From positions 1 through 33,268 of the forward strand of contig NZ_BAJV01000023.1 in assembly GCF_000613885.1 (NCBI RefSeq): DNA of 33,268 nt, in the 5' to 3' direction. This stretch comes from Asaia prunellae JCM 25354 (lineage in GTDB: Bacteria; Pseudomonadota; Alphaproteobacteria; Acetobacterales; Acetobacteraceae). The notes under the pieces were generated by a model. The model ran no database searches and was not told where the DNA came from. It saw nothing but the letters and a program-made list of their open reading frames with translations. Positions within the stretch are counted from its first letter, which is position 1. Each line of letters begins with the position of its first letter. The position numbers were made by a program, and so were the translations under genes. This document shows, one piece after another, positions 547 through 24,852 of the stretch.

Positions 547-1587
547 TCAGACGCCGGAAGGGTGGGGTAAATTCAGGGAGGTAATGATCTGGGCAGGACT
601 GGGGAGGGCATTGATGCTTGCAGGGCGAAGACGGTTGGCTTCGATCAGAAGCTGACAGGCCTGGAGCATGTCCGCCCCCAGATCATGATGAAGAATTGCC
701 GTCAGCGTCCCATCTGCAAGAAGTGCCCTGTTATCCCTGTCCAGATCATGACCAATAAAGACTCGCGGTATCCGGTTGCATTTCTCAAGTGCTGCCGCGA
801 TTGCCTTGTTGCCTCCTCCGATCGAATAGATGGCCTCGATTCCGGGATGGGCAAGAAGAGCCTGTTCGACAAGGTCATAGGTCCGCCAGTCGAGGCCGTT
901 ACCCTCTCCTAGGGAAACAATACCCAGATGAGGTGCATGACAGGCGAGATAATGCCGAAAGCTGTGTTCCCGTTCTTCCTCTCCCTTGAATCGGGCGCTG
1001 GACACGACGACGAGTACCGAACTCTCCGCATAAAGCAGACGCGGCATCCATCCTGCAATAAGCCATGCCGCCGTGCTGCCCGCTCCATGGTTATCGAGGC
1101 CAATATAGGCCAGACGGTCGCTGCCATGGAGATCGGTCACAAGGGTGATGACAGGAATGCGAGCCCGGGCACAGGCCCGGATTTCCTCGCGAATGGCTGG
1201 ATGATCCGGGGCCTTTAGAAGGATGCCATTCGAACCGCGTTTGCGGATACGTGCCATAATGGCGGCTGTCTCCCTGCCTGTCGCTGTCTCGCTCAGATGC
1301 GCACGTACGCGCAGGGCGATAGGCAGCAATGCGGGCAGTTGGGCTTCAAGTGCCATCCGGACGGCAGAAGAGAAGCGGTTTGGCGCCTCCATCAACAGAT
1401 CAATGACCATCCGGCTGCCTTGCAGGGAGTTTTCGAGGCTCTGGCGTGAGAGCTCGTCCATGGCCTGATACACGCGTCGTCTTGTGGCGGGACGTACGCC
1501 CTCTCGATCATGCAGTACACGGTCCACGGTGGCGAGACCAACACCAGCCTGTCTCGCAATATCCTTGAGGGGATGTTTGTCAGCCAT
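547..1587 (-). CDS. LacI-family transcriptional regulator
   Basis: 346 residues, normal for the family. An N-terminal helix-turn-helix (about residues 7-30, LKDIARQAGVGLATVDRVLH) is followed by a hinge and a periplasmic-binding-protein-like effector domain with strands such as IPVITLVTDL and AYIGLDNHGAGSTAAWLI (about 60-340). The VDRVLHDREGVRPAT variant of the recognition helix is typical of the subgroup with a Peripla_BP_4-type sugar-binding domain, so a sugar or polyol effector is likely (inference). The gene is divergent from the dioxygenase at 1730 with 142 bases between them, so it probably controls itself and that gene. The start is the ATG at 1587, preceded by AAGAAGG. Direct repeats and a small inverted repeat in the intergenic region could be its operator. 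Confidence 0.88.
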   Translation of the reverse strand: MADKHPLKDIARQAGVGLATVDRVLHDREGVRPATRRRVYQAMDELSRQSLENSLQGSRMVIDLLMEAPNRFSSAVRMALEAQLPALLPIALRVRAHLSETATGRETAAIMARIRKRGSNGILLKAPDHPAIREEIRACARARIPVITLVTDLHGSDRLAYIGLDNHGAGSTAAWLIAGWMPRLLYAESSVLVVVSSARFKGEEEREHSFRHYLACHAPHLGIVSLGEGNGLDWRTYDLVEQALLAHPGIEAIYSIGGGNKAIAAALEKCNRIPRVFIGHDLDRDNRALLADGTLTAILHHDLGADMLQACQLLIEANRLRPASINALPSPAQIITSLNLPHPSGV

Positions 1588-1729: not shown

Positions 1730-2926
1730 GTGAAGCCCAATACTCTCTCTGAAAAAAAAACGGATCAGAACTGGTATTCGCCAGATTCCGTATCGCTTGA
1801 AGATCTGAAAATCCTTACGGGTCAGAAAGTTACTCTGCGTGATTACCCTCTTGCCTCTGATATCGGAGGTGGACAGGTCCCTCTCTATGATTGCGCTGCG
1901 TTGCGTCGTCTTTTGGCTCAGCCGGAAGGCAGGTGCCGCATCATGGCCGAATGGGTTTCCGCACTTAAAGACGGGCCGGGTATCATCGTGCTGAAACAGG
2001 CTTTCGACGATGTCGAGGCTTTGGATCACGTTACCGTCCAGTTCGAGAAGCTGATTGCCAATGAACGGCGGAATGGCATGGAAACAGGCGATCACTTCGC
2101 CAAAAAGGGAGCAAATGACCGCGTCTGGAACGCTCTCGAAAAGCTGTGCCTGCTCGATCCCGAAGGTTTTGTCCGTTATTACGCCAATGACATGATCGCG
2201 CTTGTCAGCGAAGCCTGGCTCGGTCCAGCCTATCAGATCACGTCACAGGTCAATGTGGTCAATCCCGGTGGTGAGGCACAATCCGTCCATCGTGATTACC
2301 ATCTTGGCTTCCAGTCTCCCCAACAGGTGAGTCAATATCCCGCGCATGTTCATGCTCTTTCACCTTTCCTGACCTTGCAGGGAGCGGTGGCGCATTGTGA
2401 CATGCCGCTCGAAAGCGGACCGACGCTGTATATGCCGTTTACCCAGAAATATGGCCCCGGCTATCTGGCGACGCAGACCCCGGAGGTGAGGGAGTGGTTC
2501 AACGAGAATTATCTCCAGCTTCCCTTGCACAAGGGTGATGCTGTTTTTTTCAGCCCGGCATTGTTTCACGCTGCGGGGAGTAACCGTTCCAGAAGCACAA
2601 GGCGGATGGCCAATCTCCTTCAGGTGTCGTCCGCATTCGGACGGGCGATGGAGAGTATGGATCGGGCCCGTATGGCCCGTGCTTTGTATCCGGTGCTGCA
2701 GGAACACAACCGGGACCAAAGCCTTGCACAGGAGGCAATTGGCCGGGTCATTGCCGCAAGTGCGGAAGGCTATGCCTTTCCGACCAATCTCGATCGCGAC
2801 CCACCGATTGGTGGGTTGGCACCGCAAAGTCAACAGGCCCTGTTCCGTCAGGCGCTGGAGGAAAACTGGGCAGAGGCGCGTTTCGTCGAAGCGCTTGCAG
2901 AACGGGTCAGAAGCACACTGACCTGA
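1730..2926 (+). CDS. Phytanoyl-CoA dioxygenase (PhyH) family protein, Fe(II)/2-oxoglutarate-dependent
   Basis: 398 residues. The double-stranded beta-helix iron site is visible: the proximal HxD pair is H187 and D189 in SVHRDYH, the distal histidine is H280 in PALFHAAGSNRS, and arginines 286-288 just after it fit the 2-oxoglutarate-binding position. Family members hydroxylate aliphatic carbons with O2, releasing succinate and CO2; the family includes ectoine hydroxylase and phytanoyl-CoA hydroxylase. The substrate cannot be told here. Translation starts at a GTG with GGAG nine bases upstream. It is transcribed divergently from a LacI-type regulator, which suggests substrate-induced control. 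The following operon starts 475 bases further on, on the same strand, so a metabolic link is possible but not shown. Confidence 0.85.
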   Translation: MKPNTLSEKKTDQNWYSPDSVSLEDLKILTGQKVTLRDYPLASDIGGGQVPLYDCAALRRLLAQPEGRCRIMAEWVSALKDGPGIIVLKQAFDDVEALDHVTVQFEKLIANERRNGMETGDHFAKKGANDRVWNALEKLCLLDPEGFVRYYANDMIALVSEAWLGPAYQITSQVNVVNPGGEAQSVHRDYHLGFQSPQQVSQYPAHVHALSPFLTLQGAVAHCDMPLESGPTLYMPFTQKYGPGYLATQTPEVREWFNENYLQLPLHKGDAVFFSPALFHAAGSNRSRSTRRMANLLQVSSAFGRAMESMDRARMARALYPVLQEHNRDQSLAQEAIGRVIAASAEGYAFPTNLDRDPPIGGLAPQSQQALFRQALEENWAEARFVEALAERVRSTLT

Positions 2927-3158
2927 AAGACGAAATGAGCAGGCTGGTCGGGGATTTCTCGCTCCTCGGCCGGTTCAGCCTTTCCGCTGGATTTCGGCTG
3001 TCTCATATCAGCCGCTATAAAAAACTATCTGACTATTCTGTTGTCTAGAAATTTCTTCTCACAAATTATTCATATTACACATCTGTATAGTCAAAAAAAC
3101 TGTAAATCATTGCAAATAAATTATAAATCCTGATGAAAACACGGAATCACAAGCGGAA

Positions 3159-3174
3159 AAGGTTAATAAACCTT
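3159..3174. promoter_or_regulatory. Perfect inverted repeat, possible operator of the HDAC-like operon
   Basis: AAGGTT, four bases, then AACCTT form a perfect dyad about 230 bases before the operon start. It abuts three tandem TTATGT-type units. No regulator gene lies directly beside it, so the protein that binds it, if any, is unknown. Confidence 0.3.
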
Positions 3175-3199
3175 ATGTGAATTATGTATTTTATGTAAT
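3173..3199 (+). repeat. Three tandem 9-bp repeats starting TTATGT
   Basis: TTATGT recurs at 3173, 3182 and 3191 with an exact 9-bp period; the last three bases of each unit vary but are A/T rich (GAA, ATT, AAT). The first unit overlaps the preceding dyad by two bases. The arrangement resembles a small iteron cluster for a regulator, though AT-rich sequence makes such repeats easier by chance. Confidence 0.35.
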
Positions 3200-3401
3200 A
3201 AACATGGTATAGAAGAAAGATCTGTCGGGTATTCCGGTGGGATTGCTGCCATTGCACAGACTTTCTTAATAGAAAACATTTTTATATCGCAATAATTTTG
3301 TAAATATTGCCGGTAATGCCCACAACATGACACGGGCGGCGGCTTCGCTCTGACTGGCAGCTTGTTCGCAGGTTTCCGATAACCAGATACGGAGTAAAAT
3401 C

Positions 3402-4519
3402 GTGAAGCGTACGGGTTTTTTCTCGGATGAGACCTGCTTCTGGCATGTCGGACAGCCGCATGTTGGTCCGCTGCCAGTGGGGGGCTGGGTTCAGCCAACG
3501 GCGGGCGCCAGTCTGCCAGAATCGCCAGACAGCAAACGGCGCCTGAAAAGTCTGCTTGATGTCTCGGGATTATTGGCAGAACTGGTATGCCACAGTGCTC
3601 CGGCCGCGTACGAGGAGGATCTGCTGCGCGTCCATACGCCGGATTATCTGGCCGCTTTCAGCGTCCTGAGCGCTGCCGAGGGTGGTACGATGGGACCGCA
3701 GGCCAGTTTCGGCAAAGGCAGTTACGATTATGCACGCAAATCGGCCGGGTTGGTGATGCGTGCTTTGGACATGGTTCTGGTTGGCGAGCTGGACAATGCC
3801 TATGCGCTCAGTCGACCGCCCGGGCATCATTGCCTGCCTGACCAGGCGATGGGCTTTTGCTTCCTAGCCAATATCCCTATCGCCATTGAGGCAGCGCGTT
3901 TTCGACATGGCATTTCCCGCATTGCCGTCGTGGATTGGGACGTACATCATGGTAACGGGACTGAGGCGATCTTCTATGATCGTGCTGATGTACTGACGAT
4001 TTCGATCCATCAGGAGAATTGCTTTCCTGCAGGCTTCGGCGGCACGGAACGTCGGGGCGTGGGAGCGGGAACAGGATATAATATCAATATCCCGCTCCTG
4101 CCAGGCGGCGGCCATGAGGCGTATGTCGGCGCCATGGAAAAGATCGTGGTGCCAGCTCTGATGGATTATCGTCCGGAGCTGATCATCGTCGCCTGCGGTT
4201 TCGATGCCAATGCGTTCGATCCGCTGGCCCGGATGATGCTGGCGTCACCGACATACCGCTATCTCATGTCACGTATTATGGACGTTGCGGAAATCTGCTG
4301 TGCCGGCAAGGTCGTCGCCGCGCATGAGGGAGGGTATTCCGAGGCCTATGTACCGTTCTGCGGGCAGGCACTGATCGAGACGATGGCCGACCACAAGACT
4401 GCGTCGTGGATGAGATCGAACCCTTTATCGCACTTCAGCAACCTTCCGCCCGCTTCGCGGCCTTTCAGAACATGATTCTGGACGAAATGGCTGCCGGATT
4501 CGGTCTGGCCTCGTCATGA
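3402..4519 (+). CDS. Class II histone-deacetylase-fold amidohydrolase (frameshifted near its 3' end)
   Basis: Zinc-dependent deacylase of the HDAC/acetylpolyamine amidohydrolase superfamily. Bacterial members remove acetyl or other acyl groups from polyamines and related amines in the cytosol. The active site is complete: tandem histidines H142-H143 in RPPGHH, zinc ligands D180 and H182 in DWDVHHGNG and D268 in GFDANAFDP, and the transition-state tyrosine Y312 in EGGYSEAY. Start is a GTG. The frame at the start runs to 4475, but the family-like tail (VVDEIEPFIALQQPSARF) lies in another frame and stops at 4519. Restoring one G at about 4401-4404 (GCGT to GCGGT) gives 372 residues. The stop then overlaps the next gene's ATG (ATGA), supporting the repair. 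First gene of a coupled operon. Confidence 0.87.
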
Positions 4520-5813
4520 TGAAACTCTCACCAACCGACGCAGCCCTGTTCGCACGCCGTCAGGCCGTGATGGGAACCGCCTCTCCCTTGTTTTACGACA
4601 CGCCCCTCCACGCGGTCAGCGCCCAGGGGGTATGGCTGACGGATAGTGCCGGTCGACGCTATCTGGATGCCTATAACAACGTGCCGCATGTCGGACATTG
4701 TCACCCGAGGGTGGTGCAGGCGATCACGGACCAGATTGCGCGCCTTAACATCCACACGCGCTATCTTACCGAACCCGTCGTCGCTTATGCTGAAAGGCTT
4801 GTGGCAACCGTTGATGCACCGCTGAACGTGGTGCAGTTCTGCTGCACCGGCACCGAAGCAAACGAGCTGGCGTTGCGCATGGCGCGCTTCGGTAGCGGGC
4901 AGCACGGCGTTATCGTCAGCGATTTCAGCTATCACGGCAATTCCTCCACGTTGGCAGCACTGACCACCGGCCTGCCTGCTCCCGAAGCCCTTGCGCCGTG
5001 GGTCCGTACAATACGCATCCCCGACGTGACAGGGTGTCCTGCCAGTGAGCATACGGCGATTCTGGCTGAAGCCTTGCGGGCTGTGTCCGACGCCGTCGCA
5101 TCCTTGCAGGAGGCCGGCTACGGCGTCGCGGCACTGCTGCTGGATACCGTCTTTTCGACCGAAGGGTTGAGAGCGGTACCCGAAGGCTATCTGGCTGGTG
5201 CAGTGGCGCGGATCCGTGATGCCGGCGGCTTTTTCATAGGAGACGAGGTACAGCCGGGTTTCGGCCGCACAGGCGGTGTAATGTGGGGATACCAGCGTCA
5301 CGGGATCGTGCCGGATTTCGTGACCTTGGGCAAACCCATGGGCAATGGCCTGCCGGTAGCAGGCGTGATCACGCGGCGTGATCTTCTGGAGTCCTTCGGC
5401 AAGGCCGCGCTCTATTTCAACACGTTCGGCGGGAATCCAGTTTCGGCCGTCGCCGGGTTGGCGGTGATGAATGTTCTGCGCGACGAGGACCTTTTGGCTT
5501 ACGCCCAGCGTCTGGCGCGTGCGTAAAGGACGAACTGGGGACATTGGCGACTAGACATGACGGTATTCAGGATGTTCGCGGCTGCGGTCTGTTTTTTGGC
5601 CTCACGTTCGTTCATCCCGGCACGGGAATCCCGGATGCCGCACGGACCCGGCGCGTCGTGAATGCCATGCGTGAGCACGGCGTGCTGATCAGTCGCATTG
5701 GTCCGGACGACAATGTGCTGAAGATCCGTCCCCCCATGGTCATTCAGGAGGATGAGGCGGCGCTGCTTATCGCTACGCTCGATACGGTTCTGGCCAAGGT
5801 CCCACACCAATGA
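4516..5813 (+). CDS. Class III PLP enzyme of the ammoniophospholyase (AGXT2L) type, frameshifted
   Basis: Fold-type I PLP enzyme. The sequence NNVPHVGHCHP near residue 54, LGKPMGNGLPVA with the Schiff-base lysine K273, cofactor aspartate D243 in IGDEVQPGFGRTG, YFNTFGGNPVS and NVLKIRPPM match the AGXT2L1/AGXT2L2 group. These are not true transaminases: they remove ammonia and phosphate together from O-phosphoethanolamine or 5-phosphohydroxylysine, giving an aldehyde. The first frame stops at 5526; the C-terminal domain (DVRGCGLFFGL onward) follows in another frame. Adding one G at 5521-5524 (GCGT to GCGGT) gives a 432-residue protein of normal size. It overlaps its neighbours by ATGA on both sides. 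The kinase gene next door supports a phospholyase rather than a transaminase role. The substrate is unknown. Confidence 0.87.
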
Positions 5814-6787
5814 ACGAGGCAATGCTGACCGCCGAGGCGATCACTGTGCTTGGGCAATGGACGGGGGGCTGGCAGGTCGAACGTCTGCTCAAGTATCGGG
5901 AGAATGCCGTTTTTGCGGTTTCGGATGCCACGGGGCAGCGCGCAGTGCTCCGCCTGCACCGGCCGGGTTATCACAATGCGGCAGCCCTGCATTCCGAGCT
6001 TTTCTGGATGAGCGCGCTTGTCGCGCAGGGCTTTCCAGCGCCCTCTCCGATCCGTGCAGCAAACGGCGCCATGATCGTGGCCTATGGTACGGGCGCCAGC
6101 GGATTTGCAGACATGATGAGTTGGGTGCCAGGGCGACCTGTCGTCGAGATCGACGATCTGCCGACGCTAACCCGCATCTATGCGACGTTAGGGGACATGC
6201 TCGGACGGATGCACCGCGATGCCGCATACTGGACGCCGCCTGCGGATTTTTTTCGCCCCGCCTGGGACCATGATGCTCTGTTAGGCGAGACGCCCCTCTG
6301 GGGTAATTTCCGTGCGTTTCCTGGCCTGCACGGTGCGGGACGCGAAATAGTGCTGCATGCGGCGGAACGAGCCAGTGAGGCGTTGCGGGCCCTGAGTACC
6401 GGGCCGGCACATTACGGCCTCATTCATGCCGATGCCCTGGCAGATAATGTGATATTTGACGAGCACGCGGGCGTGACACTGATTGACTTCGATGATTGCG
6501 GGCCAGGGTGGTTCCTGTTCGATATTGTAACCTGCCTGTATTTTCATACGCCAGAAGATCGCCTGCCTGTGCTGGAGCGCGCATTCCTGTCCGCTTATCG
6601 TCATCATTTTCATTTCGATACGACCGATCGTGATCACCTCCCGCTGTTCATGTTCCTTCGTGCCCTGACCTATGTGGGCTGGGTACAAAGCCGCCCCGAA
6701 ACCGAGACGGCGAGGGAACTGGGAGATGCTTTCGCGCGAAGGGCGGAGGAACTTGCCCGCGCGTATCTTGTCCATCGCACGGTATGA
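5810..6787 (+). CDS. Aminoglycoside-phosphotransferase-fold small-molecule kinase
   Basis: 325 residues with the APH/choline-kinase fold: an N-lobe with the strand AVLRLHRPG carrying the ATP-contacting positive residue, the catalytic loop HADALADN (H206, D208, N213) and the metal-binding IDFDD (D226, D228, D229). Relatives include hydroxylysine kinase and stress-response kinase/homoserine-kinase II-like proteins, which phosphorylate hydroxyl groups of small metabolites. Hydroxylysine-kinase-like genes are often adjacent or fused to AGXT2L-type phospholyases; here the kinase ATG overlaps the phospholyase stop. The likely job is to make the phospho-substrate that the upstream PLP enzyme cleaves (inference). 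The reading frame is intact, unlike its two upstream neighbours and the transporter downstream. Confidence 0.85.
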   Translation: MNEAMLTAEAITVLGQWTGGWQVERLLKYRENAVFAVSDATGQRAVLRLHRPGYHNAAALHSELFWMSALVAQGFPAPSPIRAANGAMIVAYGTGASGFADMMSWVPGRPVVEIDDLPTLTRIYATLGDMLGRMHRDAAYWTPPADFFRPAWDHDALLGETPLWGNFRAFPGLHGAGREIVLHAAERASEALRALSTGPAHYGLIHADALADNVIFDEHAGVTLIDFDDCGPGWFLFDIVTCLYFHTPEDRLPVLERAFLSAYRHHFHFDTTDRDHLPLFMFLRALTYVGWVQSRPETETARELGDAFARRAEELARAYLVHRTV

Positions 6788-6797
6788 GGAACGGATA

Positions 6798-7978
6798 ATG
6801 CCCTCCAATCCGCCAACATCCTCACATCCTGGCGTCTGGCGTCAGCTTCTGGCGCTCGTAGCCCTGTCCGCCGTGGGATCGGTCATGCCACTGGGGGCGC
6901 CTGCCCTGGCGGGAGTACTGGCACGCGGGTTCGCGCTCTCGCCTTCTCAGGTCGGGCTCTATTTTCTGTCGGAACTGGGGGCGACGAGCCTGGTCAGCCT
7001 TCCCGCTATTCTTCTTGTGCGTTACGTGCCCTTGCGGCGGGCGATGGCGATGGCCGTCGCTGGCTTCGTTGTTTTCAATCTGCTGTCCTGGTTCGCGGGG
7101 TCCTATGCCTGGCTGCTTGCGTTGCGCGTCGGCGCGTCGGCGGCTGGAGGCACCGTGATGATCCTGACCATGACCGGGATCGCCCGCTTGCCACGCCAGG
7201 AAGTAGGGTTTGGCGCCTGGGTCGCAGGACAATTGATGCTGAGTGCGCTTGTCATTCTGGCGTTTCCGGTCATAGCCGATCATATCGGGGTTCAGGGGGT
7301 TTATGTCTTTGTTGCCCTGTTAATGGCAGGTGCGGCGGTAACCCTTCCATGGCTACCGGCTTCCGTCGCGCCTGGTGCAGCCGAGGTGGGTGTGTCGGTC
7401 GACATTCTGGGTACCGGATTGCGCATCGGGGGCGTTCTGCTCTTCTATCTCGCTATCGCTGGCATCTGGACTTTTCTCGAGAAATCGGCGTTGATTCCGG
7501 TCTGTTGCGCGCGCGCGTTGATAGTGCCATGGCCACGGCGGCGTTGTTTGGCATCGTTGGCGGCCTGTGTGCCTCTGCCGTGGGCCGTTGGGTTGACCAG
7601 CGCGGCCTTGGGCACGCAGCGCTGGCACTGATGGCAGGTTATGGTTTGATCGTTGTCGCGCTGCTCGCGCTGATAGGCGACCTGTCGGGGCTACGCTTTC
7701 TGGGGGCGGCCTGCGTTTTCAAATTCGCCTGGACATTCACTGTGCCATTCGTGCTTGCACGTATCGTGCGTCTGGCAAGAGCCATTGAGACGATGGCAGT
7801 CGTCAATCTGACCCTCGGCGCGGGCTTTGCACTGGGGCCGGCTGCCGGGGGGTATGTGCTCCAGACCAGCGGCGGAACGACCCCGCTGCTGCTGGGCGCG
7901 TGTCTGCTGCTGGCAGGATCGGTCCTGCTGATTCTCGTGCGTCATAGGCCGAGGGGGCTGATCGACAACGTGTCATGA
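6798..7978 (+). CDS. MFS transporter (frameshifted)
   Basis: Repaired length 393 residues with about twelve hydrophobic segments, an inner-membrane secondary transporter. The chosen start is the ATG at 6798, ten bases after the kinase stop and preceded by GAGGAAC; the frame is open further upstream, but that part overlaps the kinase gene. The N-terminal half reads to about residue 231 (IAGIWTFLEKSA) and the C-terminal half (DSGLLRARVDSAMATAALFG onward) continues in another frame. One missing G at 7488-7491 (GCGT for GCGGT) explains this, the same sequence change as in the two enzyme genes upstream. As the only transporter in the operon it probably imports the substrate, or exports a product, of the deacylase-kinase-phospholyase set. 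Confidence 0.82.
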
Positions 7979-8052
7979 CAGAGGTTTGTGCGGCGGATGC
8001 TCTTGAACTGAAAGAGGGCCTGATTCTGATCTGTGATCATCCTTGCCGGTAG
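7975..8052 (+). pseudogene. Possible N-terminal remnant of an N-formylglutamate amidohydrolase gene
   Basis: An ATG overlaps the transporter stop (ATGA) and opens a 25-codon frame ending in EGLILICDHPCR before a stop at 8050-8052. The LILICDH strand resembles the start of N-formylglutamate amidohydrolases, where a conserved Cys-Asp-His occurs near residues 15-25. Nothing recognisable of the rest follows. The coupling to the transporter suggests that the operon once had a fifth gene, another amide hydrolase, lost by deletion. This is a short match, so the call is tentative. Confidence 0.35.
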
Positions 8053-8168
8053 TGGTGGGCTCTCGATCAGAACAGGTATGTTTCCTACGCTTCATGCGAT
8101 CACGGCTTTCTCCCATTGGAGCATCGTAATCGCTGCGAGTATGTGAAAACCCCGCCTTTGTGCTTTGG

Positions 8169-8964
8169 TTAGTTCACATCAGCCAATGTGTCATCATCAT
8201 CTCCTCGCCGCCAGTATCCGGCCGCACGTATCTGCGCCCTTGGCACAGCCTCCTCATTCACGAGATGATCGCGCAAGGTGCGTACGACGCTGATCTCCGC
8301 TGCGATCCAGACATGAAGTTTGTCTGTTGCAGGCAGAACGACATGACGCAGCAGGGCGTGGAGGGTCTCATCACCACCCTTCTGGCACCGATGCACCTCC
8401 ATCCAGGCATGGCTGAAAAGCGGATAGGATTTCTCGGTTTCCCGCGTGTCGAGAAGCACAACGGCACGGTGATTGGGGGGGAGGGTTTCAAGCGTGCGGG
8501 CGATGGCAGGCAAGGCCGTATCATCGCCAATCAGCAAGTGACGGGTCAGCGTATCCGGGACGATATGCGATGCTTTGGGGCCCCATGCCAAGTATCTGGC
8601 CTTTTCTGGCCTGAGCCGCCCATCGTGTGGCGGGGCCCTCTTCATGAAGCACGAAATCGATGATCAGCTCACGCTGTTCTTCGTCAAACCGTCTTGGCGT
8701 GTAATCACGGGCGATCACACGTGGGTCATGCACGGCACTGCGATCGGCTCCTATTTCGGGCAGGATCAGCTCGTCACTCCCCGGTTGCGGAAAGAACAGC
8801 TTGACGTGATCATCAGTACCCGCAGTCACGAAATCATGCAGGTCATCTCCCTTGAAGACGATGCGCTGCATTGTGCTGGAGAGAGGGATGATTTCCGCAA
8901 CTTCGATACGTCGAAGCCGCAGGGGGTGGCGTATCTTCGCGGGAATATGCTCCGTGCTGGTCAT
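8169..8964 (-). CDS. Siderophore-interacting protein, NfeF/YqjH-like ferric-siderophore reductase (frameshifted)
   Basis: FAD-dependent reductase releasing iron from ferric siderophores in the cytosol. The N-terminal barrel has the FAD-binding ARDYTPRRF motif; the C-terminal NAD(P)H domain has LLIGDDTALPAIARTLE and ends with the family tail AAGYWRRGDDD. The N-terminal part (8521-8964) and the C-terminal part (8169-8645) lie in different frames that meet at the run GGGGCCCC at 8577-8584. Removing one base gives GMGPKASHIVP and a 264-residue protein, normal for the family. Its ATG overlaps the stop of the upstream PadR gene (ATGA), so the two are translationally coupled. In E. coli the equivalent pair is yqjH (nfeF) and yqjI (nfeR). 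Confidence 0.87.
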
Positions 8965-9590
8965 GACTGGTTTTCCCCTGTGATTTCCAGGGCTGCGCGC
9001 GTGAGTATGGCCGCTATGCGTCGCGCTTCTGCAGGGCTGCAGCCACGGCGGTCATAGAGGGCTGTCTTGATCTTGTGCCGTGCCTTGTGCAGGCCATCCG
9101 CGGCCTCGGGGTCCGCATCATGCAGCCCTGCAAAAGCCTCACGGACCTCGCTCATACGGCTACCGATACGCGCCAGAATATCCAGAATGCGCTCTGCTTC
9201 CGCTCTGTTGCCGGACAGCTGGTCGCAGCCTTGTCTGGTGATGGTGTAGAGTTTGCGCGTACCCTCAGGAGTCACCTCAGCTTGTCCGATTTCCTCAAGA
9301 TAGGTGAGGGCCGGATACACCATGCCGGGGCTGGGTTTATAGAAACCGTTGGAACGCTCTTCGAGCCTGCGGATGATTTCATACCCATGAGCCGGGCTTT
9401 CTTCCAGCAGGGCAAGGATAACGAGCTGAAGCTCCTCGGAACTCAGTTTGCGCCCACCCGGAATGTCGTCGCCGCGATGGCGGCCAAAGCGCCCACCGGA
9501 GCGATGACCCCCATGAGAACGACGGCCCTCACCGGAACCGGCGCCGTCGTGACGGCTGAATGCATGTCGAAAATGATGACGGAAAAGCAT
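8961..9590 (-). CDS. PadR-family regulator with His-rich N-terminus, NfeR/YqjI-like
   Basis: 209 residues. The winged helix-turn-helix (about 50-125, ELQLVILALLEESPAHGYEI, then PGMVYPALTYLEEIGQAEV) is PadR type. Before it lies an extension of about 48 residues rich in His, Arg and Gly (RHHFRHAFSRHDG, SHGGHRSGGRFGRHRGDD). E. coli YqjI/NfeR has a comparable metal-binding extension, senses nickel and represses the ferric reductase gene yqjH. Here the reductase gene follows with an ATGA overlap. A perfect palindrome lies 30-49 bases before the start and a partial copy is closer to the GGAG ribosome site, consistent with autorepression. Metal identity is inferred from the family. Confidence 0.88.
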   Translation of the reverse strand: MLFRHHFRHAFSRHDGAGSGEGRRSHGGHRSGGRFGRHRGDDIPGGRKLSSEELQLVILALLEESPAHGYEIIRRLEERSNGFYKPSPGMVYPALTYLEEIGQAEVTPEGTRKLYTITRQGCDQLSGNRAEAERILDILARIGSRMSEVREAFAGLHDADPEAADGLHKARHKIKTALYDRRGCSPAEARRIAAILTRAALEITGENQS

Positions 9591-9601
9591 TTATATCTCC
9601 T

Positions 9602-9639
9602 GTTATATCTTAAGAGTGTGTTATATCTTAAGATATAAC
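9602..9639. promoter_or_regulatory. Probable PadR/NfeR operator: 20-bp perfect palindrome plus adjacent partial copy
   Basis: GTTATATCTTAAGATATAAC at 9620-9639 is a perfect 20-bp palindrome. A second copy starting at 9602 matches its first 14 bases and then diverges, so the two sites are 18 bp apart. Both lie in the leader of the PadR-reductase operon, the second next to the ribosome-binding site. E. coli NfeR acts on repeated palindromic elements in its regulated promoters. This supports repression of the operon by its own first product. Confidence 0.75.
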
Positions 9640-9730
9640 GCAAGAGTATTCTGCATATGCTTCTTTTTTTCGAAAGGACGTTTCCGCACAGCCCGCTTTG
9701 GCCCGTGAAGACCAAAGCAGGAAAAAGGGC

Positions 9731-11113
9731 TCAGCAGGCCCAGACGGTCTTGATATTCATGAACTCATGCAGGCCGAGTTCAGTCAGTTCGCGGCCATAG
9801 CCGCTGGCTTTCACGCCACCGATGGGGAGGGCCGGGTCAGATGCTGTAATCCGGTTGATGAAAACGCCGCCAGTTTCGATTCGCTGGGCGAGGGTCTGAG
9901 CGAGAGCGGCATCCTCTGTCCACAGACTGGCACCAAGTCCGTAGGCGCTGTCATTGGCCAGGGAGATGGCGTGCTCGACATCGCGTGCTTCGATAAGGCA
10001 GGCAACAGGGCCAAAAAGCTCTTCCTTGAACGCAGTCATATGGCGAGTAATACCTGCAAGAACGGTTGGTTCGTACCAGGCGCCGGGACGATCGACCGCT
10101 TTGCCACCCAGCAGCAGCTGGGCGCCTTCGGAGATGCTGCGCCTGACCTGCTCATGCAACCCGTCACGCAGATCGGCGCGTGCCATAGGTCCTATGAATG
10201 CATCGTCACTGAGAGGGGCCTGCAGTGTCAGGGAACGCGCCTTTTCAAGGAATTTCTGCGCAAAGGCTTCGGCAATCGGTGCTTCGAGTATGATGCGCTT
10301 GGCTGCGATGCAGACCTGACCGCAATTGGCGAAGCGCGCGGCAATAGCCGCATCGACCGCCTTGTCGAGATTGGCCGTGGCGAGAACAATGAACGGATCA
10401 GAGCCGCCGAGTTCGAGGAGTGATTTCTTTCCGTTCTGACCGGCGATCCCGGCAAGGATACGCCCGGCTCGCACACTCCCTGTGACAGTCACGCCGGAAA
10501 TCCGGGAATCGGCAATCACATGGGCGGTCTGTTCCCGGGAGAGGTTGACACTCATGAAAACGTCGTCGAGATCGCATTCGCGGGCGATTTCGTTGAGTAA
10601 TTCGCCGCAACCCAGTGTATTTTCGGCCGGCTTGACGATGAAGCCATTTCCGCCGACCAGAATTGGCACGGCCGCACGGATGATCTGCCAGTACGGAAAA
10701 TTCCAGGGCATGACGGCCAGAACGATTCCGGTTGGCGCATAACTCAGATATGCCTTGCCTACAGGCACGGTCATGGGCTTGTCTCGTAGCAATGCCGGAG
10801 CATGCTGGCCGTACCAGTCGATGACCGAAGCGCATTTTTCGATCTCGGTGCGCGCCGAGCTGATTGTCTTGCCCATTTCCAGGGTTGCCATGCGCGCCAG
10901 TTCATCCTTGCGCTCGCGCAGTCTGGTAGCAAAACGATGCAGCAGATCCAGACGGGCACCCAGGGATTTCGCCCGCCATCCTTCATAGCCTCGCTCAACC
11001 TGACGCAGCGTATCGTGCACCGCGCTGTCAGACAGGAAGGGATAATAGTTCAGGGTCTCGCCGTTGGCTGGGTTGACTGTCGAGACGCCGTCATCGGAGT
11101 GCGGGCTGGTCAT
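9731..11113 (-). CDS. NAD(P)-dependent succinate-semialdehyde dehydrogenase-type aldehyde dehydrogenase
   Basis: About 460 residues, cytosolic aldehyde dehydrogenase of the GabD/Sad type, oxidising succinate semialdehyde or a similar aldehyde to the acid. Visible motifs: the start STVNPANGETLNYYPF, PWNFPYWQIIRAAVPILVGGN in the cofactor domain, ELGGSDPF with the general-base glutamate, ANCGQVCIAAKR with the catalytic cysteine, and the C-terminal INRITASDPALPIGGVKASGYGRE. The frame stays open to 11425, but the start was set at 11113, where GAGGTAG precedes an ATG and family homology begins. It is a single gene with a terminator-free spacer. It could accept the aldehyde made by the phospholyase operon at 3402-7978, but nothing in the sequence ties them together. 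Confidence 0.88.
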   Translation of the reverse strand: MTSPHSDDGVSTVNPANGETLNYYPFLSDSAVHDTLRQVERGYEGWRAKSLGARLDLLHRFATRLRERKDELARMATLEMGKTISSARTEIEKCASVIDWYGQHAPALLRDKPMTVPVGKAYLSYAPTGIVLAVMPWNFPYWQIIRAAVPILVGGNGFIVKPAENTLGCGELLNEIARECDLDDVFMSVNLSREQTAHVIADSRISGVTVTGSVRAGRILAGIAGQNGKKSLLELGGSDPFIVLATANLDKAVDAAIAARFANCGQVCIAAKRIILEAPIAEAFAQKFLEKARSLTLQAPLSDDAFIGPMARADLRDGLHEQVRRSISEGAQLLLGGKAVDRPGAWYEPTVLAGITRHMTAFKEELFGPVACLIEARDVEHAISLANDSAYGLGASLWTEDAALAQTLAQRIETGGVFINRITASDPALPIGGVKASGYGRELTELGLHEFMNIKTVWAC

Positions 11114-11530
11114 GATTTCTACCTCTGGTTGTTGTTTCAATAACGCCATACCTGTTGCGTCGGATTGTCTGACCGGATCAGTCGGGCCCTTGCTTGGCGG
11201 AAGAAGTACCGCCGATAGCCGCCGAGAGTGTTCCGCAAGCAAGGAGCAGATGCTCCCGAACATGACGGAGAAAGCTGTTCTTGGACTATGGTCCGGTTTG
11301 GGTCGCAGGAGTAACATCTCCCGGGAGTGATCTGGCTCCTGTTGTGTTGTCTGGCCTCCTGAGAGGAGGCTGACTGTTTCGTTTTCCTCTGACGGTGTAG
11401 GATGAAAAAAAACCGGCTTCGCCACAATATTTGGTGACTGCCGGTAAGGTCAGGCGTTGCGTCTGTCATCACAGGACCTGTCATTTCCAGCCCCGCCTTG
11501 CGGCGTGCCAGCTCAGGGAGAACACATCTC
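11114..11530. other. Divergent intergenic region between the aldehyde dehydrogenase and EcsC-like genes
   Basis: Roughly 415 bases. The minus frame of the dehydrogenase is open through about 100 codons here but shows no family similarity. A 7-bp hairpin (GCCTCCT, three bases, AGGAGGC) sits at 11354-11370 and a CTCCCGGGAG palindrome at 11318-11327. No gene can be supported. The promoters of both divergent genes must lie here. Confidence 0.5.
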
Positions 11531-12367
11531 ATGGCTCCAGCAACCGGATCAACCTTCTCCGGCATCGGCGAAATCGCTCCTCTCGCCCTCGACAGCGAGT
11601 CCCTGGCGCAGCTTCAGGCGGCTCTTGCCAAGGTTGAACACGGGCGTGGTGTGCTTGTACGTCTGGCTGATCTGATGGGTGGTGCTGTAGGGCAGGCGAC
11701 ACGGCTTGGTATGCAGGGCCTGGGCATGGCGCCCAATATCCAGGCCAAGCTGCAGGGCCTTGCCGAAGCATCCATCACACGGGCTTTCGATGTTGCCATT
11801 CTGGGTATGGCGCAGGAATCTGCCGTCAAGGCTCCAAAATGGCGTGATCCGGCAGCTCAGGCGGCCGTTGCCGTATCCGGGGCGCTCGGTGGTTTCGGGG
11901 GTGTTGTGGGGTTGATGCCTGATATCGGGTTCACGACTCTCACGATCATGCGTGAAATCGCCAGGATTGCGCGTGAGGAAGGCGAGGATCTGTCTGACGA
12001 CGATACCAGGCGGGCCTGTCTTGAGGTTTTCGCTCTCAAAGGTTTTCTCGCCGGTCAGTCGGGCGATGAAAGCGAGCTGGGCTTCTTTTCTGCCCGGGCC
12101 CTTATGCGTGGCAAACCAATCGTTCTACTCATTGCCGAAGTCGCCTCGCATTATGGTATCGGACTGTCGCGTAAATTCGCCCTGCAGATGGTACCTGTAG
12201 CAGGGGCACTCTGTGGTGCTTCCCTGAATGCGGCTTTTCTCTCACATTACCGTGCTGTGGCCCGGGCGCAGTTTACCATCAGACGTCTGGAGCGGCAGCA
12301 CGGACCGATTGTGCGTGATACGGCACAGCATATGCGTCAGACAGGTAGCGTCGACGCGAGTATCTGA
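11531..12367 (+). CDS. EcsC family protein
   Basis: 278 residues. The conserved core is recognisable: AFDVAILGMAQ, AAVAVSGALGGFGGVVGLMPDIGFTT (a Gly-rich hydrophobic stretch around 115-140), then TTLTIMREIARIAREEGEDL, CLEVFAL and the C-terminal VPVAGALCGASLNAAFLSHY hydrophobic segment. EcsC-domain proteins are membrane-associated; in Bacillus EcsC accompanies an ABC transporter, but in Proteobacteria they stand alone and their function is unsettled. The ATG at 11531 was chosen over the upstream TTG at 11498 because GGGAG lies ten bases before it. There is no operon partner on this strand; a small minus-strand membrane protein gene converges on it. Confidence 0.83.
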   Translation: MAPATGSTFSGIGEIAPLALDSESLAQLQAALAKVEHGRGVLVRLADLMGGAVGQATRLGMQGLGMAPNIQAKLQGLAEASITRAFDVAILGMAQESAVKAPKWRDPAAQAAVAVSGALGGFGGVVGLMPDIGFTTLTIMREIARIAREEGEDLSDDDTRRACLEVFALKGFLAGQSGDESELGFFSARALMRGKPIVLLIAEVASHYGIGLSRKFALQMVPVAGALCGASLNAAFLSHYRAVARAQFTIRRLERQHGPIVRDTAQHMRQTGSVDASI

Positions 12368-12381
12368 TCGCAGATCGCTTA

Positions 12382-12400
12382 CCCTGTTGCCGAGACAGGG
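12382..12400. terminator. Weak hairpin between convergent EcsC and small membrane protein genes
   Basis: CCCTGT and ACAGGG pair across a 7-base loop, with a short T-run (CTCTTTC) ten bases further on the plus strand. It lies just after the EcsC stop, where a terminator is expected, but lacks a proper U-tract. Confidence 0.3.
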
Positions 12401-12409
12401 AAGGCTCTT

Positions 12410-12574
12410 TCAATCCGGCTTGCGGGTGTAGAAGATTTCAAAAATACCAACCGGTACAAGCTGGATCGAGAAGATCACTGTCATGACGAAAGCGAGTACC
12501 TGATAATGCGGGGCGATAAAGGCCAGCACAGCGCAGAGCGCAATGCCGATCAGATAAACGAAAGTCAAAGGCAT
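12410..12574 (-). CDS. Small membrane protein of unknown function (54 residues)
   Basis: The frame encodes two hydrophobic helices: TFVYLIGIALCAVLAFIA at about 3-20 and VLAFVMTVIFSIQLVPVGIF at about 26-45, then a charged end EIFYTRKPD. This pattern, with no stop or charged residue inside the helices, is unlikely for noncoding DNA. No strong ribosome-binding site precedes the ATG. It lies between the EcsC-like gene (convergent) and aat (divergent). The family is not recognised. An inner-membrane protein with both ends on the same side is the simplest reading. Confidence 0.6.
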   Translation of the reverse strand: MPLTFVYLIGIALCAVLAFIAPHYQVLAFVMTVIFSIQLVPVGIFEIFYTRKPD

Positions 12575-12680
12575 GCCGGAATCCCATCACAAGCTGGCAG
12601 AAGGATCGGCTATCATAACCAGCTGATAGCCGCCTATCAGAAAGTGTCTGTTGCCGGCGAGTTGCGGCATAATTCCTGTC

Positions 12681-13351
12681 ATGTCTGATCTTTTGACGCC
12701 GGAGCACCTGCTGGGTGCCTATCGCATGGGTGTTTTCCCCATGTCAGAAGGAAGAGACGCTAGGGATATTACCTGGCATCGCCCCCTGGAGCGTGGGGTA
12801 TTGCCCCTGGATTGTCGCTTTCATCTTTCCCGCAGGCTGGCACGAACCGCGCTCCAGGGACGCTTTAGGGTAACCTGTGACAGGTGTTTCGACGAGGTGA
12901 TAGGCTTGTGTGCCGAAACCTCAGGTCGTGATGAGACTTGGATCAGCCAGCGCCTGCAGGGGCATTACAGCCAGTTGCATCGTCTCGGTCATGCCCATTC
13001 GGTAGAGAGCTGGGCGGATGGGACACTGGTTGGCGGGCTTTACGGTGTCAGAATCGGCGGAGCTTTTTTGGCGAGAGCATGTTCTCGCGTTGTACGGATG
13101 CCTCCAAGGTGGCGCTTGTCCACCTGGTCGCCGCACTGCGCCGCAATGGCTTTGCATTGCTCGATACGCAGTTCCCCACGGCTCATCTCGAAACCTTTGG
13201 CTGTCTCACTGTTCCTGATGAGACTTATCGGTTGATGCTGGACCATGCGGTCGGGATTGGGGCATCGTGGAATGAAGATCTTTCGCTGGACAGTCTCCGG
13301 CAGGAGATCATCCGTCTTCGTGAAGGCAGTAATGCCTGGCACGACGTTTAG
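12681..13351 (+). CDS. aat: Leucyl/phenylalanyl-tRNA--protein transferase (frameshifted)
   Basis: Transfers Leu or Phe from tRNA to proteins with N-terminal Arg or Lys, marking them for ClpAP in the N-end rule pathway. Motifs: [15 protein letters not shown] at the N-terminus, the [10 protein letters not shown] strand, [12 protein letters not shown] and then [21 protein letters not shown]. The last block is in another frame: the run of six T at 13064-13069 should be seven to read GGAFFGESMF. With one T added the protein has 223 residues, typical for Aat. In the present frame GCT TTT TTG forms a T-TTT-TTG slippery heptamer, so -1 frameshifting could also restore the protein. It probably heads an operon with the two secreted-protein genes that follow. 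Confidence 0.88.
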
Positions 13352-13362
13352 GAGGGGATAAG

Positions 13363-13995
13363 ATGTCACTATTCCAGGCAAAAGGCGCTGCGGCGTTCTC
13401 TCTGGTGGCTGTTATGGCCGGAGGGGCTACGACAGCGCTGGCACAGCAGCATCCAAGACTGTCACCCGCTCGTGATGTGACGGTGGTCTATTCGGTCCAG
13501 CCCGAGAAGATGTCCACGCCTACCGAGGCAATCGTTCAGTTCAAGGCTGAAGGGGACAAGCTGCGTATCGATGCCCCTGATCATGCAGGCTCGACCATTC
13601 TAGATCGCCCTGCCCAGCGCGTGACGCTGATCATGCACAAGCAGCGTGTCTATACGAGTTTTTCGCCCAATCATGGGCTGCGCAACCCGTTCATGCTGGA
13701 TATGGCGATGCAGTATGCTCCGGACGGGACAAGCTCCGTTGCCGGGCTGGCCTGTAACAAATGGACGATTACTTCGTCTCACGGCAAAGCTACGGCCTGC
13801 GTGACGGAAGATGGCGTGATCCTGAGCGAGGAGGGCGTTGATGCTGATGGTTTGCGTGGCAAGCTCGCAGCGCAGAAAGTGACCTATGGACCGATTGCGG
13901 AAGACCAGTTCGTGCCTCCGACTGATTATCAGCAGATAACGGGTCATATGCCGATTCCCCATGGGGGTGGCCCTCTGAGGTCCAGCAATCCGTGA
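13363..13995 (+). CDS. Secreted protein of unknown function, first of two tandem paralogs
   Basis: 210 residues with a signal peptide (AAAFSLVAVMAGGATTALA, cleavage near residue 27). The mature part is beta-rich, begins DVTVVYSVQPE and has two cysteines in GLACNKWTITSS and TACVTEDGVILSE that may form a disulphide in the periplasm. It resembles DUF4412-type proteins in layout, but a family cannot be named with certainty. AGGAGG overlaps the aat stop and precedes the ATG, giving strong coupled initiation. The next gene starts inside its stop codon (GTGA) and is a diverged copy of it. Confidence 0.75.
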   Translation: MSLFQAKGAAAFSLVAVMAGGATTALAQQHPRLSPARDVTVVYSVQPEKMSTPTEAIVQFKAEGDKLRIDAPDHAGSTILDRPAQRVTLIMHKQRVYTSFSPNHGLRNPFMLDMAMQYAPDGTSSVAGLACNKWTITSSHGKATACVTEDGVILSEEGVDADGLRGKLAAQKVTYGPIAEDQFVPPTDYQQITGHMPIPHGGGPLRSSNP

Positions 13996-14588
13996 TCATT
14001 AAAATTCCTGCTGTTTGCGGTCTTGTTCTCGTTTCATTCACATCAGCTATGGCATCGCCCGGTGATGCAGGTCAGGGTCCGGTGACGACACCCTATGTCA
14101 CGCCACGGGTTGATGTGGATGTGACGTATCAGGCAACCGGGCCTGACGGTCAGGTCTATGCCCAGCGTATGCGGTGGAATGCCGCCCACTGGCAGCAGCG
14201 CCTGGATATGCAGAGCACGGGTCTCATCATGCTGACGGATTACCGGGCTCACCGTCTGTCGGTCGTCGATATGCGCGCCCGGACTTATACTGTATCGGGT
14301 GCGCCGGATGCGCAGTTTGCCCCGCCCGGCCAGCGCGCTGCTGGACAGTGGATCAGAGGGGCTGAAGACCAGGTGGCCAATCAGCCCTGTACCCACTGGA
14401 AATCGACCGATACTGATGGTCGAAATGCCGACTTCTGTTACACTGACAAGGGTGTGCTTCTAGCTGCGACACAGGACGCGGTCCCGCTCGTCCGCGCTAC
14501 CTCCTACGCTGAAATTCCGCAAGGGCCAGAGATTTTCAGAGAACCGGACGGCTTTCATGAAATCAATGCCGTGAAGCTTGCCCACTGA
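13992..14588 (+). CDS. Secreted protein of unknown function, second of two tandem paralogs
   Basis: 198 residues. It begins at a GTG overlapping the previous stop (GTGA) and carries a signal peptide (CGLVLVSFTSAMA). The order of features matches the preceding protein: a DVDVTYQATG strand, an RLDMQSTGLIMLTDY segment, a QPCTHWKS cysteine, an FCYTDKGVLLAAT cysteine and a C-terminal PDGFHEI. This points to an ancient tandem duplication. The two products may pair in the periplasm (inference). A good intrinsic terminator follows, so the aat operon ends here. Confidence 0.75.
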   Translation: MIIKIPAVCGLVLVSFTSAMASPGDAGQGPVTTPYVTPRVDVDVTYQATGPDGQVYAQRMRWNAAHWQQRLDMQSTGLIMLTDYRAHRLSVVDMRARTYTVSGAPDAQFAPPGQRAAGQWIRGAEDQVANQPCTHWKSTDTDGRNADFCYTDKGVLLAATQDAVPLVRATSYAEIPQGPEIFREPDGFHEINAVKLAH

Positions 14589-14605
14589 AGGCAAAGAAAC
14601 GGGCG

Positions 14606-14648
14606 ACGGGCATGATTGAGCAAATATGTTACAATCTTGCCCGTTTTT
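14606..14648 (+). terminator. Intrinsic terminator after the tandem secreted-protein genes
   Basis: ACGGGCATGATTG pairs with CAATCTTGCCCGT over a 13-base loop (12 of 13 pairs), immediately followed by five T. It lies 18 bases after the stop at 14588. Confidence 0.85.
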
Positions 14649-14747
14649 CGTCCTGTTCCGTCCCAAAATCGACACCATATCGACGTTATAAGATTGATGT
14701 CGGACCTGTTCGATTGTTTGGCCTGGTTCGTCGAGGAGATTTCGTCA

Positions 14748-15107
14748 ATGCGTCGTATCCTGAAAATTGGCCTAGCGGCTTTACCTCTGGCAGGTCTTCT
14801 GGGGGGCGCTCCCTTGGCTCATGCACACCCTTATGGTTGGGGTGGCGGTCCCGGCTGGCATGGTGACTGGCGCGGAGATCGTGGCTGGCGACGTGGTGGA
14901 CGTGGCAGTGCTTTTGTTGGTGGACTGGTCGGTGGGCTTGTGGGTGGCGCCGTAATCGGCGCGATGGCACGGCCTTACGCACCACCGCCGCCTGTTATCT
15001 ATGCGCCGCCACCGCCACCGCCTGTTGTTTATCAGCCCCCTCCGCGGGTGGTTTACCCGCCACCGGTTGCGGTCTATCCCTCCTATCCTGCTTACCCCCC
15101 CTATTGA
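14748..15107 (+). CDS. Exported Gly- and Pro-rich protein
   Basis: 119 residues. Start ATG at 14748 with GAGGAG upstream. The signal peptide ILKIGLAALPLAGLLGGAPL ends at AHA near residue 26. It is followed by a Gly/Trp/Arg-rich basic stretch, a hydrophobic glycine-zipper segment (FVGGLVGGLVGGAVIGAMA) and a Pro/Tyr/Val-rich tail with several PPP runs. This layout is common in small outer-membrane-associated or periplasmic proteins of Alphaproteobacteria whose function is unknown. The frame is open upstream to 14616, but that part crosses the preceding terminator. The peroxiredoxin gene follows after 21 bases. Confidence 0.78.
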   Translation: MRRILKIGLAALPLAGLLGGAPLAHAHPYGWGGGPGWHGDWRGDRGWRRGGRGSAFVGGLVGGLVGGAVIGAMARPYAPPPPVIYAPPPPPPVVYQPPPRVVYPPPVAVYPSYPAYPPY

Positions 15108-15128
15108 TTACGAGGTTTCGATTTCATC

Positions 15129-15590
15129 ATGGTAGCTATCGGCGATAGGGCGCCTGCCTTTTCTCTTCCTGCATGCGGTGGCCAGACTATTGGCAGCGAG
15201 GCTCTGAAGGGGCAGCCCTATCTGGTCTATTTCTATCCCAAGGCTGATACGCCGGGATGTACAACACAGGCCTGTGACCTGCGTGACCAGAAGCAGACCC
15301 TGGGTACGCTGGGTCTCAAGGTGATCGGAGTCAGTCCGGATCCTGTCGAAAAGCTCGACCGTTTCGCCAGAAAATATGGCCTTGATTTCATTCTTGCCAG
15401 CGACGAGCAGCATGAGCTTGCCGATCAGTACGGCACGTGGGTTGAGAAAACCAATTACGGCAAAACCTATTTCGGCATGGAGCGCAGTTCGTTTCTGGTC
15501 GATGCAGATGGTGTGATTCGGGCCATCTGGCGCAAGGTCAAGCCCGCCGAGCACGTCGCGCTGGTGACCGAAGCAGCCTCAGAATTGTAG
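15129..15590 (+). CDS. bcp: Bcp/PrxQ-type thiol peroxidase
   Basis: 153 residues, a cytosolic thioredoxin-dependent peroxiredoxin that reduces hydrogen peroxide and organic hydroperoxides. The peroxidatic cysteine is C44 in ADTPGCTTQACD and the resolving cysteine C49 lies five residues later, the atypical 2-Cys arrangement of this subfamily. The active-site Thr (T41) and the later arginine region (YFGMERSSFLVDADG) are present. It starts with an ATG 21 bases after the previous gene, preceded by GAGG. The reading frame is intact and of normal length. Confidence 0.93.
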   Translation: MVAIGDRAPAFSLPACGGQTIGSEALKGQPYLVYFYPKADTPGCTTQACDLRDQKQTLGTLGLKVIGVSPDPVEKLDRFARKYGLDFILASDEQHELADQYGTWVEKTNYGKTYFGMERSSFLVDADGVIRAIWRKVKPAEHVALVTEAASEL

Positions 15591-15605
15591 ATTTCCGGAA
15601 GCATA

Positions 15606-18796: not shown

Positions 18797-18870
18797 CAGG
18801 GCGGAGTCAGTCCTGATCTGGGGGGCAGGGCGTTTCGTCCTGTTTCGGGAAATCAGTAGAGGAGTGCGCC

Positions 18871-24780: not shown

Positions 24781-24852
24781 GAGGAACCGAAAATATTTCA
24801 GGGCAGAATTCTGCCTTTTTCCTCGGGACAGTTTTGCTGTGCAGCAGATAAT

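What the first reader, a model, noticed from the sequence alone, without database searches (positions are those of the whole stretch)
3402..7978. Coupled deacylase - phospholyase - kinase - transporter operon: candidate uncharacterised amino-alcohol catabolic system
Seen: an HDAC-fold amidohydrolase with complete zinc site, an AGXT2L-type PLP enzyme (NNVPHVGHCHP signature) and an APH-fold kinase are joined by ATGA overlaps, followed by an MFS transporter. Known: hydroxylysine kinase and its ammoniophospholyase form a two-step pathway, and bacterial homologs are often adjacent or fused. Inferred: the operon imports an N-acylated hydroxy-amine (for example an N-acetylated hydroxylysine, hydroxy-polyamine or ethanolamine-like compound), deacylates it, phosphorylates the hydroxyl and eliminates ammonia and phosphate to give an aldehyde. 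An HDAC-fold deacylase feeding a kinase/phospholyase pair is not a pathway I recognise.
Basis: partly seen in the sequence, partly recalled or inferred. Interest (0 to 1): 0.72.

Follow-up and report, generated by a model that had tools for sequence, protein, structure and literature searches.

The report
Operon for breaking down hydroxylated amines
Four neighbouring bacterial genes look like a small kit that takes in an acyl-capped hydroxy-amine, removes the cap, adds a phosphate and then splits off ammonia; related gene pairs sit beside genes for digesting aromatic compounds, so the natural food may be octopamine-like amines rather than the compounds first proposed.

Summary
The four genes are there in the order described: HDAC-fold amidohydrolase, AGXT2L-type PLP enzyme, APH-fold kinase, MFS transporter. 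One intact copy, same order and same 4-base overlaps, was found in another genus (L100). In the window the operon fills a 5.3-kb stretch that is 99 or 237 bases long in two same-genus relatives. The PLP enzyme is closest to solved phospho-lyases, the kinase to a chain I identify partly by recall as (S)-1-amino-2-propanol kinase, the deacetylase to HdaH enzymes and propanil hydrolase. So deacylate, phosphorylate, eliminate is supported by homology. The substrate is probably not the one proposed: the window kinase lies in a 27-member clade holding all 10 of 74 loci with homoprotocatechuate (hpa) or phenylacetate (paa) markers within 10 kb. I propose N-acylated aryl-ethanolamines such as N-acetyl-octopamine. 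There is no assay, and the full operon was seen in two genomes only. New variant of a known kind.

The parts
3402..4519 (+). HDAC-fold amidohydrolase (HdaH-like); frame broken between about 4395 and 4475, C-terminal part runs to the TGA at 4517-4519
   Evidence: the intact copy in L100 is closest to HdaH enzymes and propanil/dimethoate hydrolases
4516..5813 (+). Class III PLP enzyme of the phospho-lyase type; frame broken near 5515-5526
   Evidence: N-terminal piece 53.5% identical over 325 residues to the P. aurescens pTC2 class III protein, which I equate with the solved phospholyase 5g4i from matching length and sequence
5810..6787 (+). APH-fold small-molecule kinase, intact
   Evidence: best solved relative 6ef6, 3.5e-41
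6798..7978 (+). MFS transporter, frame broken near 7490
   Evidence: a relative lies next to the HDAC in 13 of 80 named HDAC loci
2927..8206 (.). Stretch of 5,280 bases that corresponds to 99 bases in G1099 (L274) and 237 bases in G555 (L269); holds the operon and intergenic DNA
   Evidence: G+C about 60-62% over most of the genes against about 57% in the flanks
1730..2926 (+). PhyH-type dioxygenase upstream; also present beside the empty site in two relatives, so not part of the insert
547..1587 (-). LacI-type regulator, possible but untested regulator
9731..11425 (-). Aldehyde dehydrogenase, best NCBIfam hit a succinate-semialdehyde dehydrogenase model (under cut-off); part of the shared genus backbone, could oxidise the aldehyde but is not linked to the operon

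Best explanation
The operon breaks down an N-acylated 2-amino-alcohol, most likely an aryl-ethanolamine such as N-acetyl-octopamine, N-acetyl-norepinephrine or N-acyl-phenylethanolamine. The MFS protein imports it, the HDAC-fold enzyme removes the acyl group, the APH-fold kinase phosphorylates the hydroxyl on the carbon next to the amine-bearing carbon, and the PLP phospho-lyase eliminates phosphate and then ammonia to leave an arylacetaldehyde. Shown here: gene order, families, closest solved relatives, tree placement and neighbourhood counts. Inferred: every reaction, the acyl group and the aryl group.
For: PLP (L100 copy): best solved match 5g4i 'phospholyase' 1.8e-145, then 6tor ethanolamine-phosphate phospho-lyase 1.4e-94; the next is dialkylglycine decarboxylase 5.8e-51. 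Kinase: 6ef6 3.5e-41. HDAC (L100 copy): HdaH enzymes 1e-147, dimethoate hydrolase 6.3e-142, propanil hydrolase 2.9e-140; the last two are small-molecule amidases (PMC11532494, passages). Kinase tree of 74 rows: 27-member clade, ultrafast bootstrap 96, SH-aLRT 92, with two or more hpa or paa markers within 10 kb in 10 of 27 against 0 of 47 outside (Fisher 1.2e-5); rows that came from the genome search only: 5 of 13 against 0 of 44 (3e-4). PLP tree: window piece, L100, the P. aurescens enzyme (hpa locus), two paa loci, Sphingomonas and Sphingobium form 7 of 48 rows, SH-aLRT 97. A. tumefaciens CFBP7129 plasmid carries PLP-kinase, hpa genes, MFS-HDAC and a 4-hydroxyphenylacetate 3-hydroxylase between 57.5 and 79.1 kb. 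Sphingomonas formosensis L138: HDAC followed by a TTQ-type amine dehydrogenase whose large subunit is closest to aromatic amine dehydrogenase, PLP-kinase about 8 kb away. Klebsiella aerogenes: MFS-HDAC beside genes annotated monoamine regulon regulator, arylsulfatase and feaB.
Against: No biochemical data. 17 of the 27 clade members had no hpa/paa marker pair within 10 kb (one of them, L097, does have annotated hpa genes that the marker rule missed). Neither the window genome nor G621 has PaaA/PaaC or HgmA, and only the window genome has a LigB-type hit, so the arylacetate may not be used as carbon there. The HDAC link is not special to this clade: HDAC within 10 kb in 3 of 27 inside (window, L100, L138) and 3 of 47 outside (L188, L195, L231); a short locus left out of the count, L111, has a 41%-identical HDAC relative about 4.7 kb from its kinase, and in Agrobacterium the distance is about 12 kb. 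The small subunit of the L138 dehydrogenase fits aromatic amine and methylamine dehydrogenase almost equally (4.4e-47 and 1e-46). By recall, 5g4i was studied with phosphoethanolamine. I fetched several plasmid loci after seeing their annotation; the restricted count leaves them out.
Confidence: 0.5

Rival explanations
1. Same reaction scheme, but the substrate is aliphatic: N-acylated ethanolamine or 1-amino-2-propanol, giving acetaldehyde or propionaldehyde.
For: Kinase best solved match 6ef6, and PLP second-best match ethanolamine-phosphate phospho-lyase. The PLP enzyme of the Rhodococcus jostii microcompartment locus is 46% identical to the window piece. Shell-gene absence from the window clade is not significant in the restricted rows (0 of 13 against 7 of 44, Fisher 0.19).
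Against: A microcompartment shell marker is near 8 of 47 kinases outside the window clade and 0 of 27 inside (Fisher 0.024). The nearest PLP enzymes sit with hpa, paa or amine dehydrogenase genes.
Confidence: 0.25
2. One reading: N-acetyl-hydroxylysine or an acetylated hydroxy-polyamine.
For: Hydroxylysine kinase and its phospho-lyase belong to the same two families (recalled). Some HDAC-fold enzymes are polyamine deacetylases (PMC11532494, passages). A few neighbours bear polyamine or lysine names: an agmatinase near the kinase of Pseudomonas sp. MPC6, a puuB-named oxidoreductase near the HDAC of K. aerogenes, a LysE-family translocator near the HDAC of Pantoea.
Against: The HDAC is HdaH-like and has PLA where HDAC10 has PEG and bacterial polyamine enzymes PIS. 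Those names are outnumbered by hpa and paa genes in the neighbour tables I read.
Confidence: 0.08
3. The HDAC is a protein lysine deacetylase that regulates the pathway rather than a step in it.
For: KpHdaH and VsHdaH of the same sub-cluster deacetylate lysine peptides (PMC11532494, passages).
Against: HDAC and MFS are a recurrent pair (13 of 80 named loci), which fits import plus processing; two members of the sub-cluster are small-molecule amidases.
Confidence: 0.12
4. A decaying operon: the three frame breaks are real and the genes are pseudogenes in this strain.
For: Three breaks in 4.6 kb, a higher density than in the rest of the window.
Against: Five other genes in about 25 kb of the window are split against a same-genus copy that is open (G513), one of them confirmed by Pfam as the two halves of a siderophore-interacting protein in two frames. 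Pieces after the PLP and MFS breaks still align at 60% and 48% to L100.
Confidence: 0.2

Closest known systems
Kinase plus phospho-lyase amino-alcohol pathways: (S)-1-amino-2-propanol (RMM/Aaum microcompartment), hydroxylysine (HYKK/PHYKPL)
   Same: APH-fold kinase then class III PLP phospho-lyase giving an aldehyde (these pathways are recalled; the kinase paper was seen only as an entry in the reference list of PMC8007038, and is not held)
   Different: No microcompartment marker in the window's clade, an HDAC-fold deacylase and an MFS transporter in the operon, and a kinase clade linked to arylacetate genes
Phospholyase 5g4i/5g4j (A1RDF1, Paenarthrobacter aurescens; accession recalled)
   Same: Closest solved relative of the PLP enzyme; its plasmid locus also holds a kinase of this family
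   Different: Neighbours are feaB and hpa genes, with no HDAC marker hit in the 24.9-kb stretch; reported substrate, by recall, is phosphoethanolamine
Bacterial classical deacylases, sub-cluster 1b (HdaH, propanil hydrolase, dimethoate hydrolase)
   Same: Closest solved relatives of the deacetylase
   Different: Not described with a kinase/phospho-lyase pair in the passages of PMC11532494 that I saw; the word aminotransferase does not occur in its main text

Membership tests
AGXT2L-type phospho-lyase (ETNPPL, 5g4i) | Closer to phospho-lyases than to other class III enzymes | tested here: met
   L100 copy: 1.8e-145 and 1.4e-94 against 5.8e-51 for the next chain, a dialkylglycine decarboxylase. 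Window piece: 53.5% to the P. aurescens enzyme, 27% to an aminotransferase of the Agrobacterium locus
AGXT2L-type phospho-lyase (ETNPPL, 5g4i) | NNVxHVGH and [TS]R[YF]L motifs (chosen here, not a published definition) | tested here: inconclusive
   Both are in the window piece, but NNVxHVGH is in only 24 of 71 PLP rows and [TS]R[YF]L in 64 of 71, and SRFL turns up in some frame of two of three loci of the other class III genes of the genome
AGXT2L-type phospho-lyase (ETNPPL, 5g4i) | Phosphate release without transamination | not testable with these tools
   Needs an assay
APH-fold amino-alcohol kinase | APH domain with LIHAD..N and DFDD stretches | tested here: met
   PF01636 8.4e-29; LIHADALADNVIF at 204 and VTLIDFDDC at 222 (their catalytic role is recalled)
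RMM/Aaum aminopropanol microcompartment system | Shell gene nearby | tested here: not met
   One shell protein used as marker: 0 of 27 in the window clade, 8 of 47 outside; the marker was not run on the window itself, whose neighbours were read as ORFs and partly by Pfam
HdaH-like classical deacylase, sub-cluster 1b | HDAC fold, zinc site, Gln-rich C-terminal helix | tested here: met
   PFIALQQ in the window and PFIAMQQ in L100 match LLEFIQQQQ of KpHdaH
Polyamine deacetylase (HDAC10/ApaH) | PEG or PIS motif | tested here: not met
   PLA in the window (motifs from passages of PMC11532494)

The most novel reading that the evidence does not exclude
Bacteria have a widespread kinase/phospho-lyase route for beta-hydroxylated aromatic amines (octopamine, norepinephrine, phenylethanolamine), feeding arylacetaldehydes into hpa or paa degradation, and this operon is a self-contained, horizontally moving version for the N-acylated forms, with an HDAC-fold enzyme acting as the deacylase.
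Probability: 0.4. Interest if true: 0.75.

Novelty: new variant of a known kind. Interest (0 to 1): 0.6.

Why it matters
It would give a physiological role to a class of bacterial HDAC-fold enzymes usually studied as protein deacetylases, and a genetic basis for bacterial breakdown of octopamine- and norepinephrine-like amines without an amine oxidase. It also suggests that the solved phospholyase 5g4i, whose gene lies in an hpa region, may have an aryl substrate.

Tried and rejected
Looked for the four-gene set in 80 named HDAC loci (9 kb flanks, some cut by contig ends): 4 of 80 had a close PLP or kinase relative (L138 both, L194 PLP, L188 and L195 kinase), none the full set. In the first 53 kinase loci examined, hpa markers were found in 1 and paa in none; the link became clear only after named plasmid loci and a phylum search were added and the tree was built. 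Of 80 HDAC loci, 1 had two or more hpa markers. Other arylacetate routes in the window genome and G621 were sought: no PaaA/C, no HgmA, one LigB hit in the window genome. PhyH was considered as a pathway member and set aside because it lies beside the empty site in two relatives. FeaB-type aldehyde dehydrogenases at 40% identity or more were near 5 of 13 MFS-HDAC loci against 2 of 67 others (Fisher 9e-4; sets written by hand, counted); the query proteins came from kin of some of these loci, so this is a hint only. Rows dropped before the tree counts: loci under 9,000 bases or with under 7,000 bases on both sides of the kinase, frames with a stop or under 230 residues, and identical proteins (78 places gave 73 rows plus the window); one of 20 places was not fetched. 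Paper searches bearing on octopamine, synephrine or phenylethanolamine breakdown, or on a phospho-lyase with these or with an APH kinase listed no paper on such a route; only open PubMed Central papers are held. No structure prediction was run.

Full report
Observation. The window holds, on the + strand, an HDAC-fold gene (3402 to about 4519), a class III PLP gene (4516 to about 5813), an APH-fold kinase (5810-6787) and an MFS gene (6798-7978). The 4-base ATGA overlaps are real. The HDAC, PLP and MFS frames are each broken once, which the finding did not mention. Against a same-genus relative (G513, L272) five other genes of the window, near 8.2-9.0, 12.7-13.3, 18.9-20.2, 21.0-23.7 and 26.2-27.5 kb, are also split while open there; the first is a siderophore-interacting protein whose two domains lie in two frames. 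Sequencing or assembly error is the simplest cause; it is not proved.

The unit. An intact copy lies in another genus of the family (G621, L100) with the same order and overlaps; its neighbours are an AraC-type regulator, a TonB receptor plug protein, a sulfatase and hydrolases. In the window the operon lies between a PhyH gene and the siderophore-interacting protein gene; in L274 these are 99 bases apart and in L269 237 bases apart, against 5,280 in the window. Five other same-genus genomes show no PLP match at 1e-70, and four show no HDAC match at 1e-60. The four genes therefore look like an acquired, self-contained cassette. Of 249 family genomes, 4 including the window's own had the HDAC at 1e-60; of the other three, L100 has the operon and L120 and L276 have no PLP, kinase or MFS relative in 16.0 and 11.6 kb.

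Enzymes. The L100 PLP enzyme matches solved phospho-lyases far better than any other chain. The window kinase matches 6ef6 best; that this chain is the aminopropanol kinase is my recall, supported only by a title in the reference list of PMC8007038. The HDAC matches HdaH enzymes, dimethoate hydrolase and propanil hydrolase, which PMC11532494 (passages seen) places in sub-cluster 1b and describes as lysine deacetylases or small-molecule amidases. The polyamine motif is absent.

Substrate. A kinase tree of 74 rows places the window in a clade of 27 (ultrafast bootstrap 96, SH-aLRT 92; SH-aLRT 95 in the quick tree). Two or more hpa or paa markers lie within 10 kb in 10 of 27 and 0 of 47 outside; for rows that came from the genome search, not picked by annotation, 5 of 13 and 0 of 44. 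Locus lengths differ, 10 kb is an arbitrary limit, and the markers come from two loci of the clade (L241, L247) that count themselves in the first figure but not in the second. The fewest changes of this label on the tree are 7. A PLP enzyme lies beside 26 of 27 kinases inside and 19 of 47 outside. The PLP tree groups the window piece with L100, the P. aurescens enzyme (hpa locus), two paa loci, and the Sphingomonas and Sphingobium loci, 7 of 48 rows, SH-aLRT 97. Annotated examples are Rhizobium leguminosarum, A. tumefaciens CFBP7129, Mesorhizobium AR07 and P. aurescens pTC2. In Sphingomonas formosensis (L138) the HDAC is followed by an amine dehydrogenase: the large subunit is closer to aromatic amine dehydrogenase (2.3e-50) than to methylamine dehydrogenase (1.5e-44), the small one fits both (4.4e-47, 1e-46), and both lie under the cut-off of the methylamine dehydrogenase models.

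The HDAC side. An MFS relative flanks the HDAC in 13 of 80 named loci. MFS-HDAC pairs lie in hpa regions in Agrobacterium and Rhizobium paknamense; in Pantoea the HDAC lies near hpa genes without the MFS; a pair lies beside monoamine-regulon, arylsulfatase and feaB genes in Klebsiella aerogenes and beside their relatives in Raoultella planticola. Against a special link, HDACs lie within 10 kb of 3 of 27 kinases inside the clade and 3 of 47 outside.

Reading. Import, deacylation, phosphorylation and elimination of an N-acyl aryl-ethanolamine is the reading that fits both halves. In the window genome and G621 no paa or homogentisate genes were found, so there the gain may be nitrogen and acetate, with the arylacetate excreted; this is inference. 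The main weaknesses are the absence of assays, the narrow spread of the full operon, and the 17 of 27 clade members without an hpa/paa marker pair. The corrections made on checking did not call for a change of the odds.

Noticed in passing
L188:2627-6155, L195:6579-10107: A TauD-type dioxygenase (in L188 closest to the NCBIfam models TmpA and gamma-butyrobetaine dioxygenase, under cut-off; the L195 neighbour was judged alike by its first residues), an APH-fold kinase of the other clade and an HDAC lie in a row: an independent kinase-HDAC pairing. In L231 a kinase of the same subclade also lies about 1.1 kb from an HDAC.
   Followed up: partly
window 8100-27600: Five genes are split against a same-genus copy that is open, suggesting many single-base errors in this assembly.
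   Followed up: partly
L241:6266-11827: In several Rhizobiales loci the PLP-kinase pair follows a Tm-1-like protein, a HAD hydrolase and a second class III aminotransferase, next to hpa genes; the role of the first three is unclear.
   Followed up: no
L248:1501-9984: Rhodococcus jostii RHA1 pRHL2 has a kinase of this family and a class III PLP enzyme beside microcompartment shell genes.
   Followed up: no
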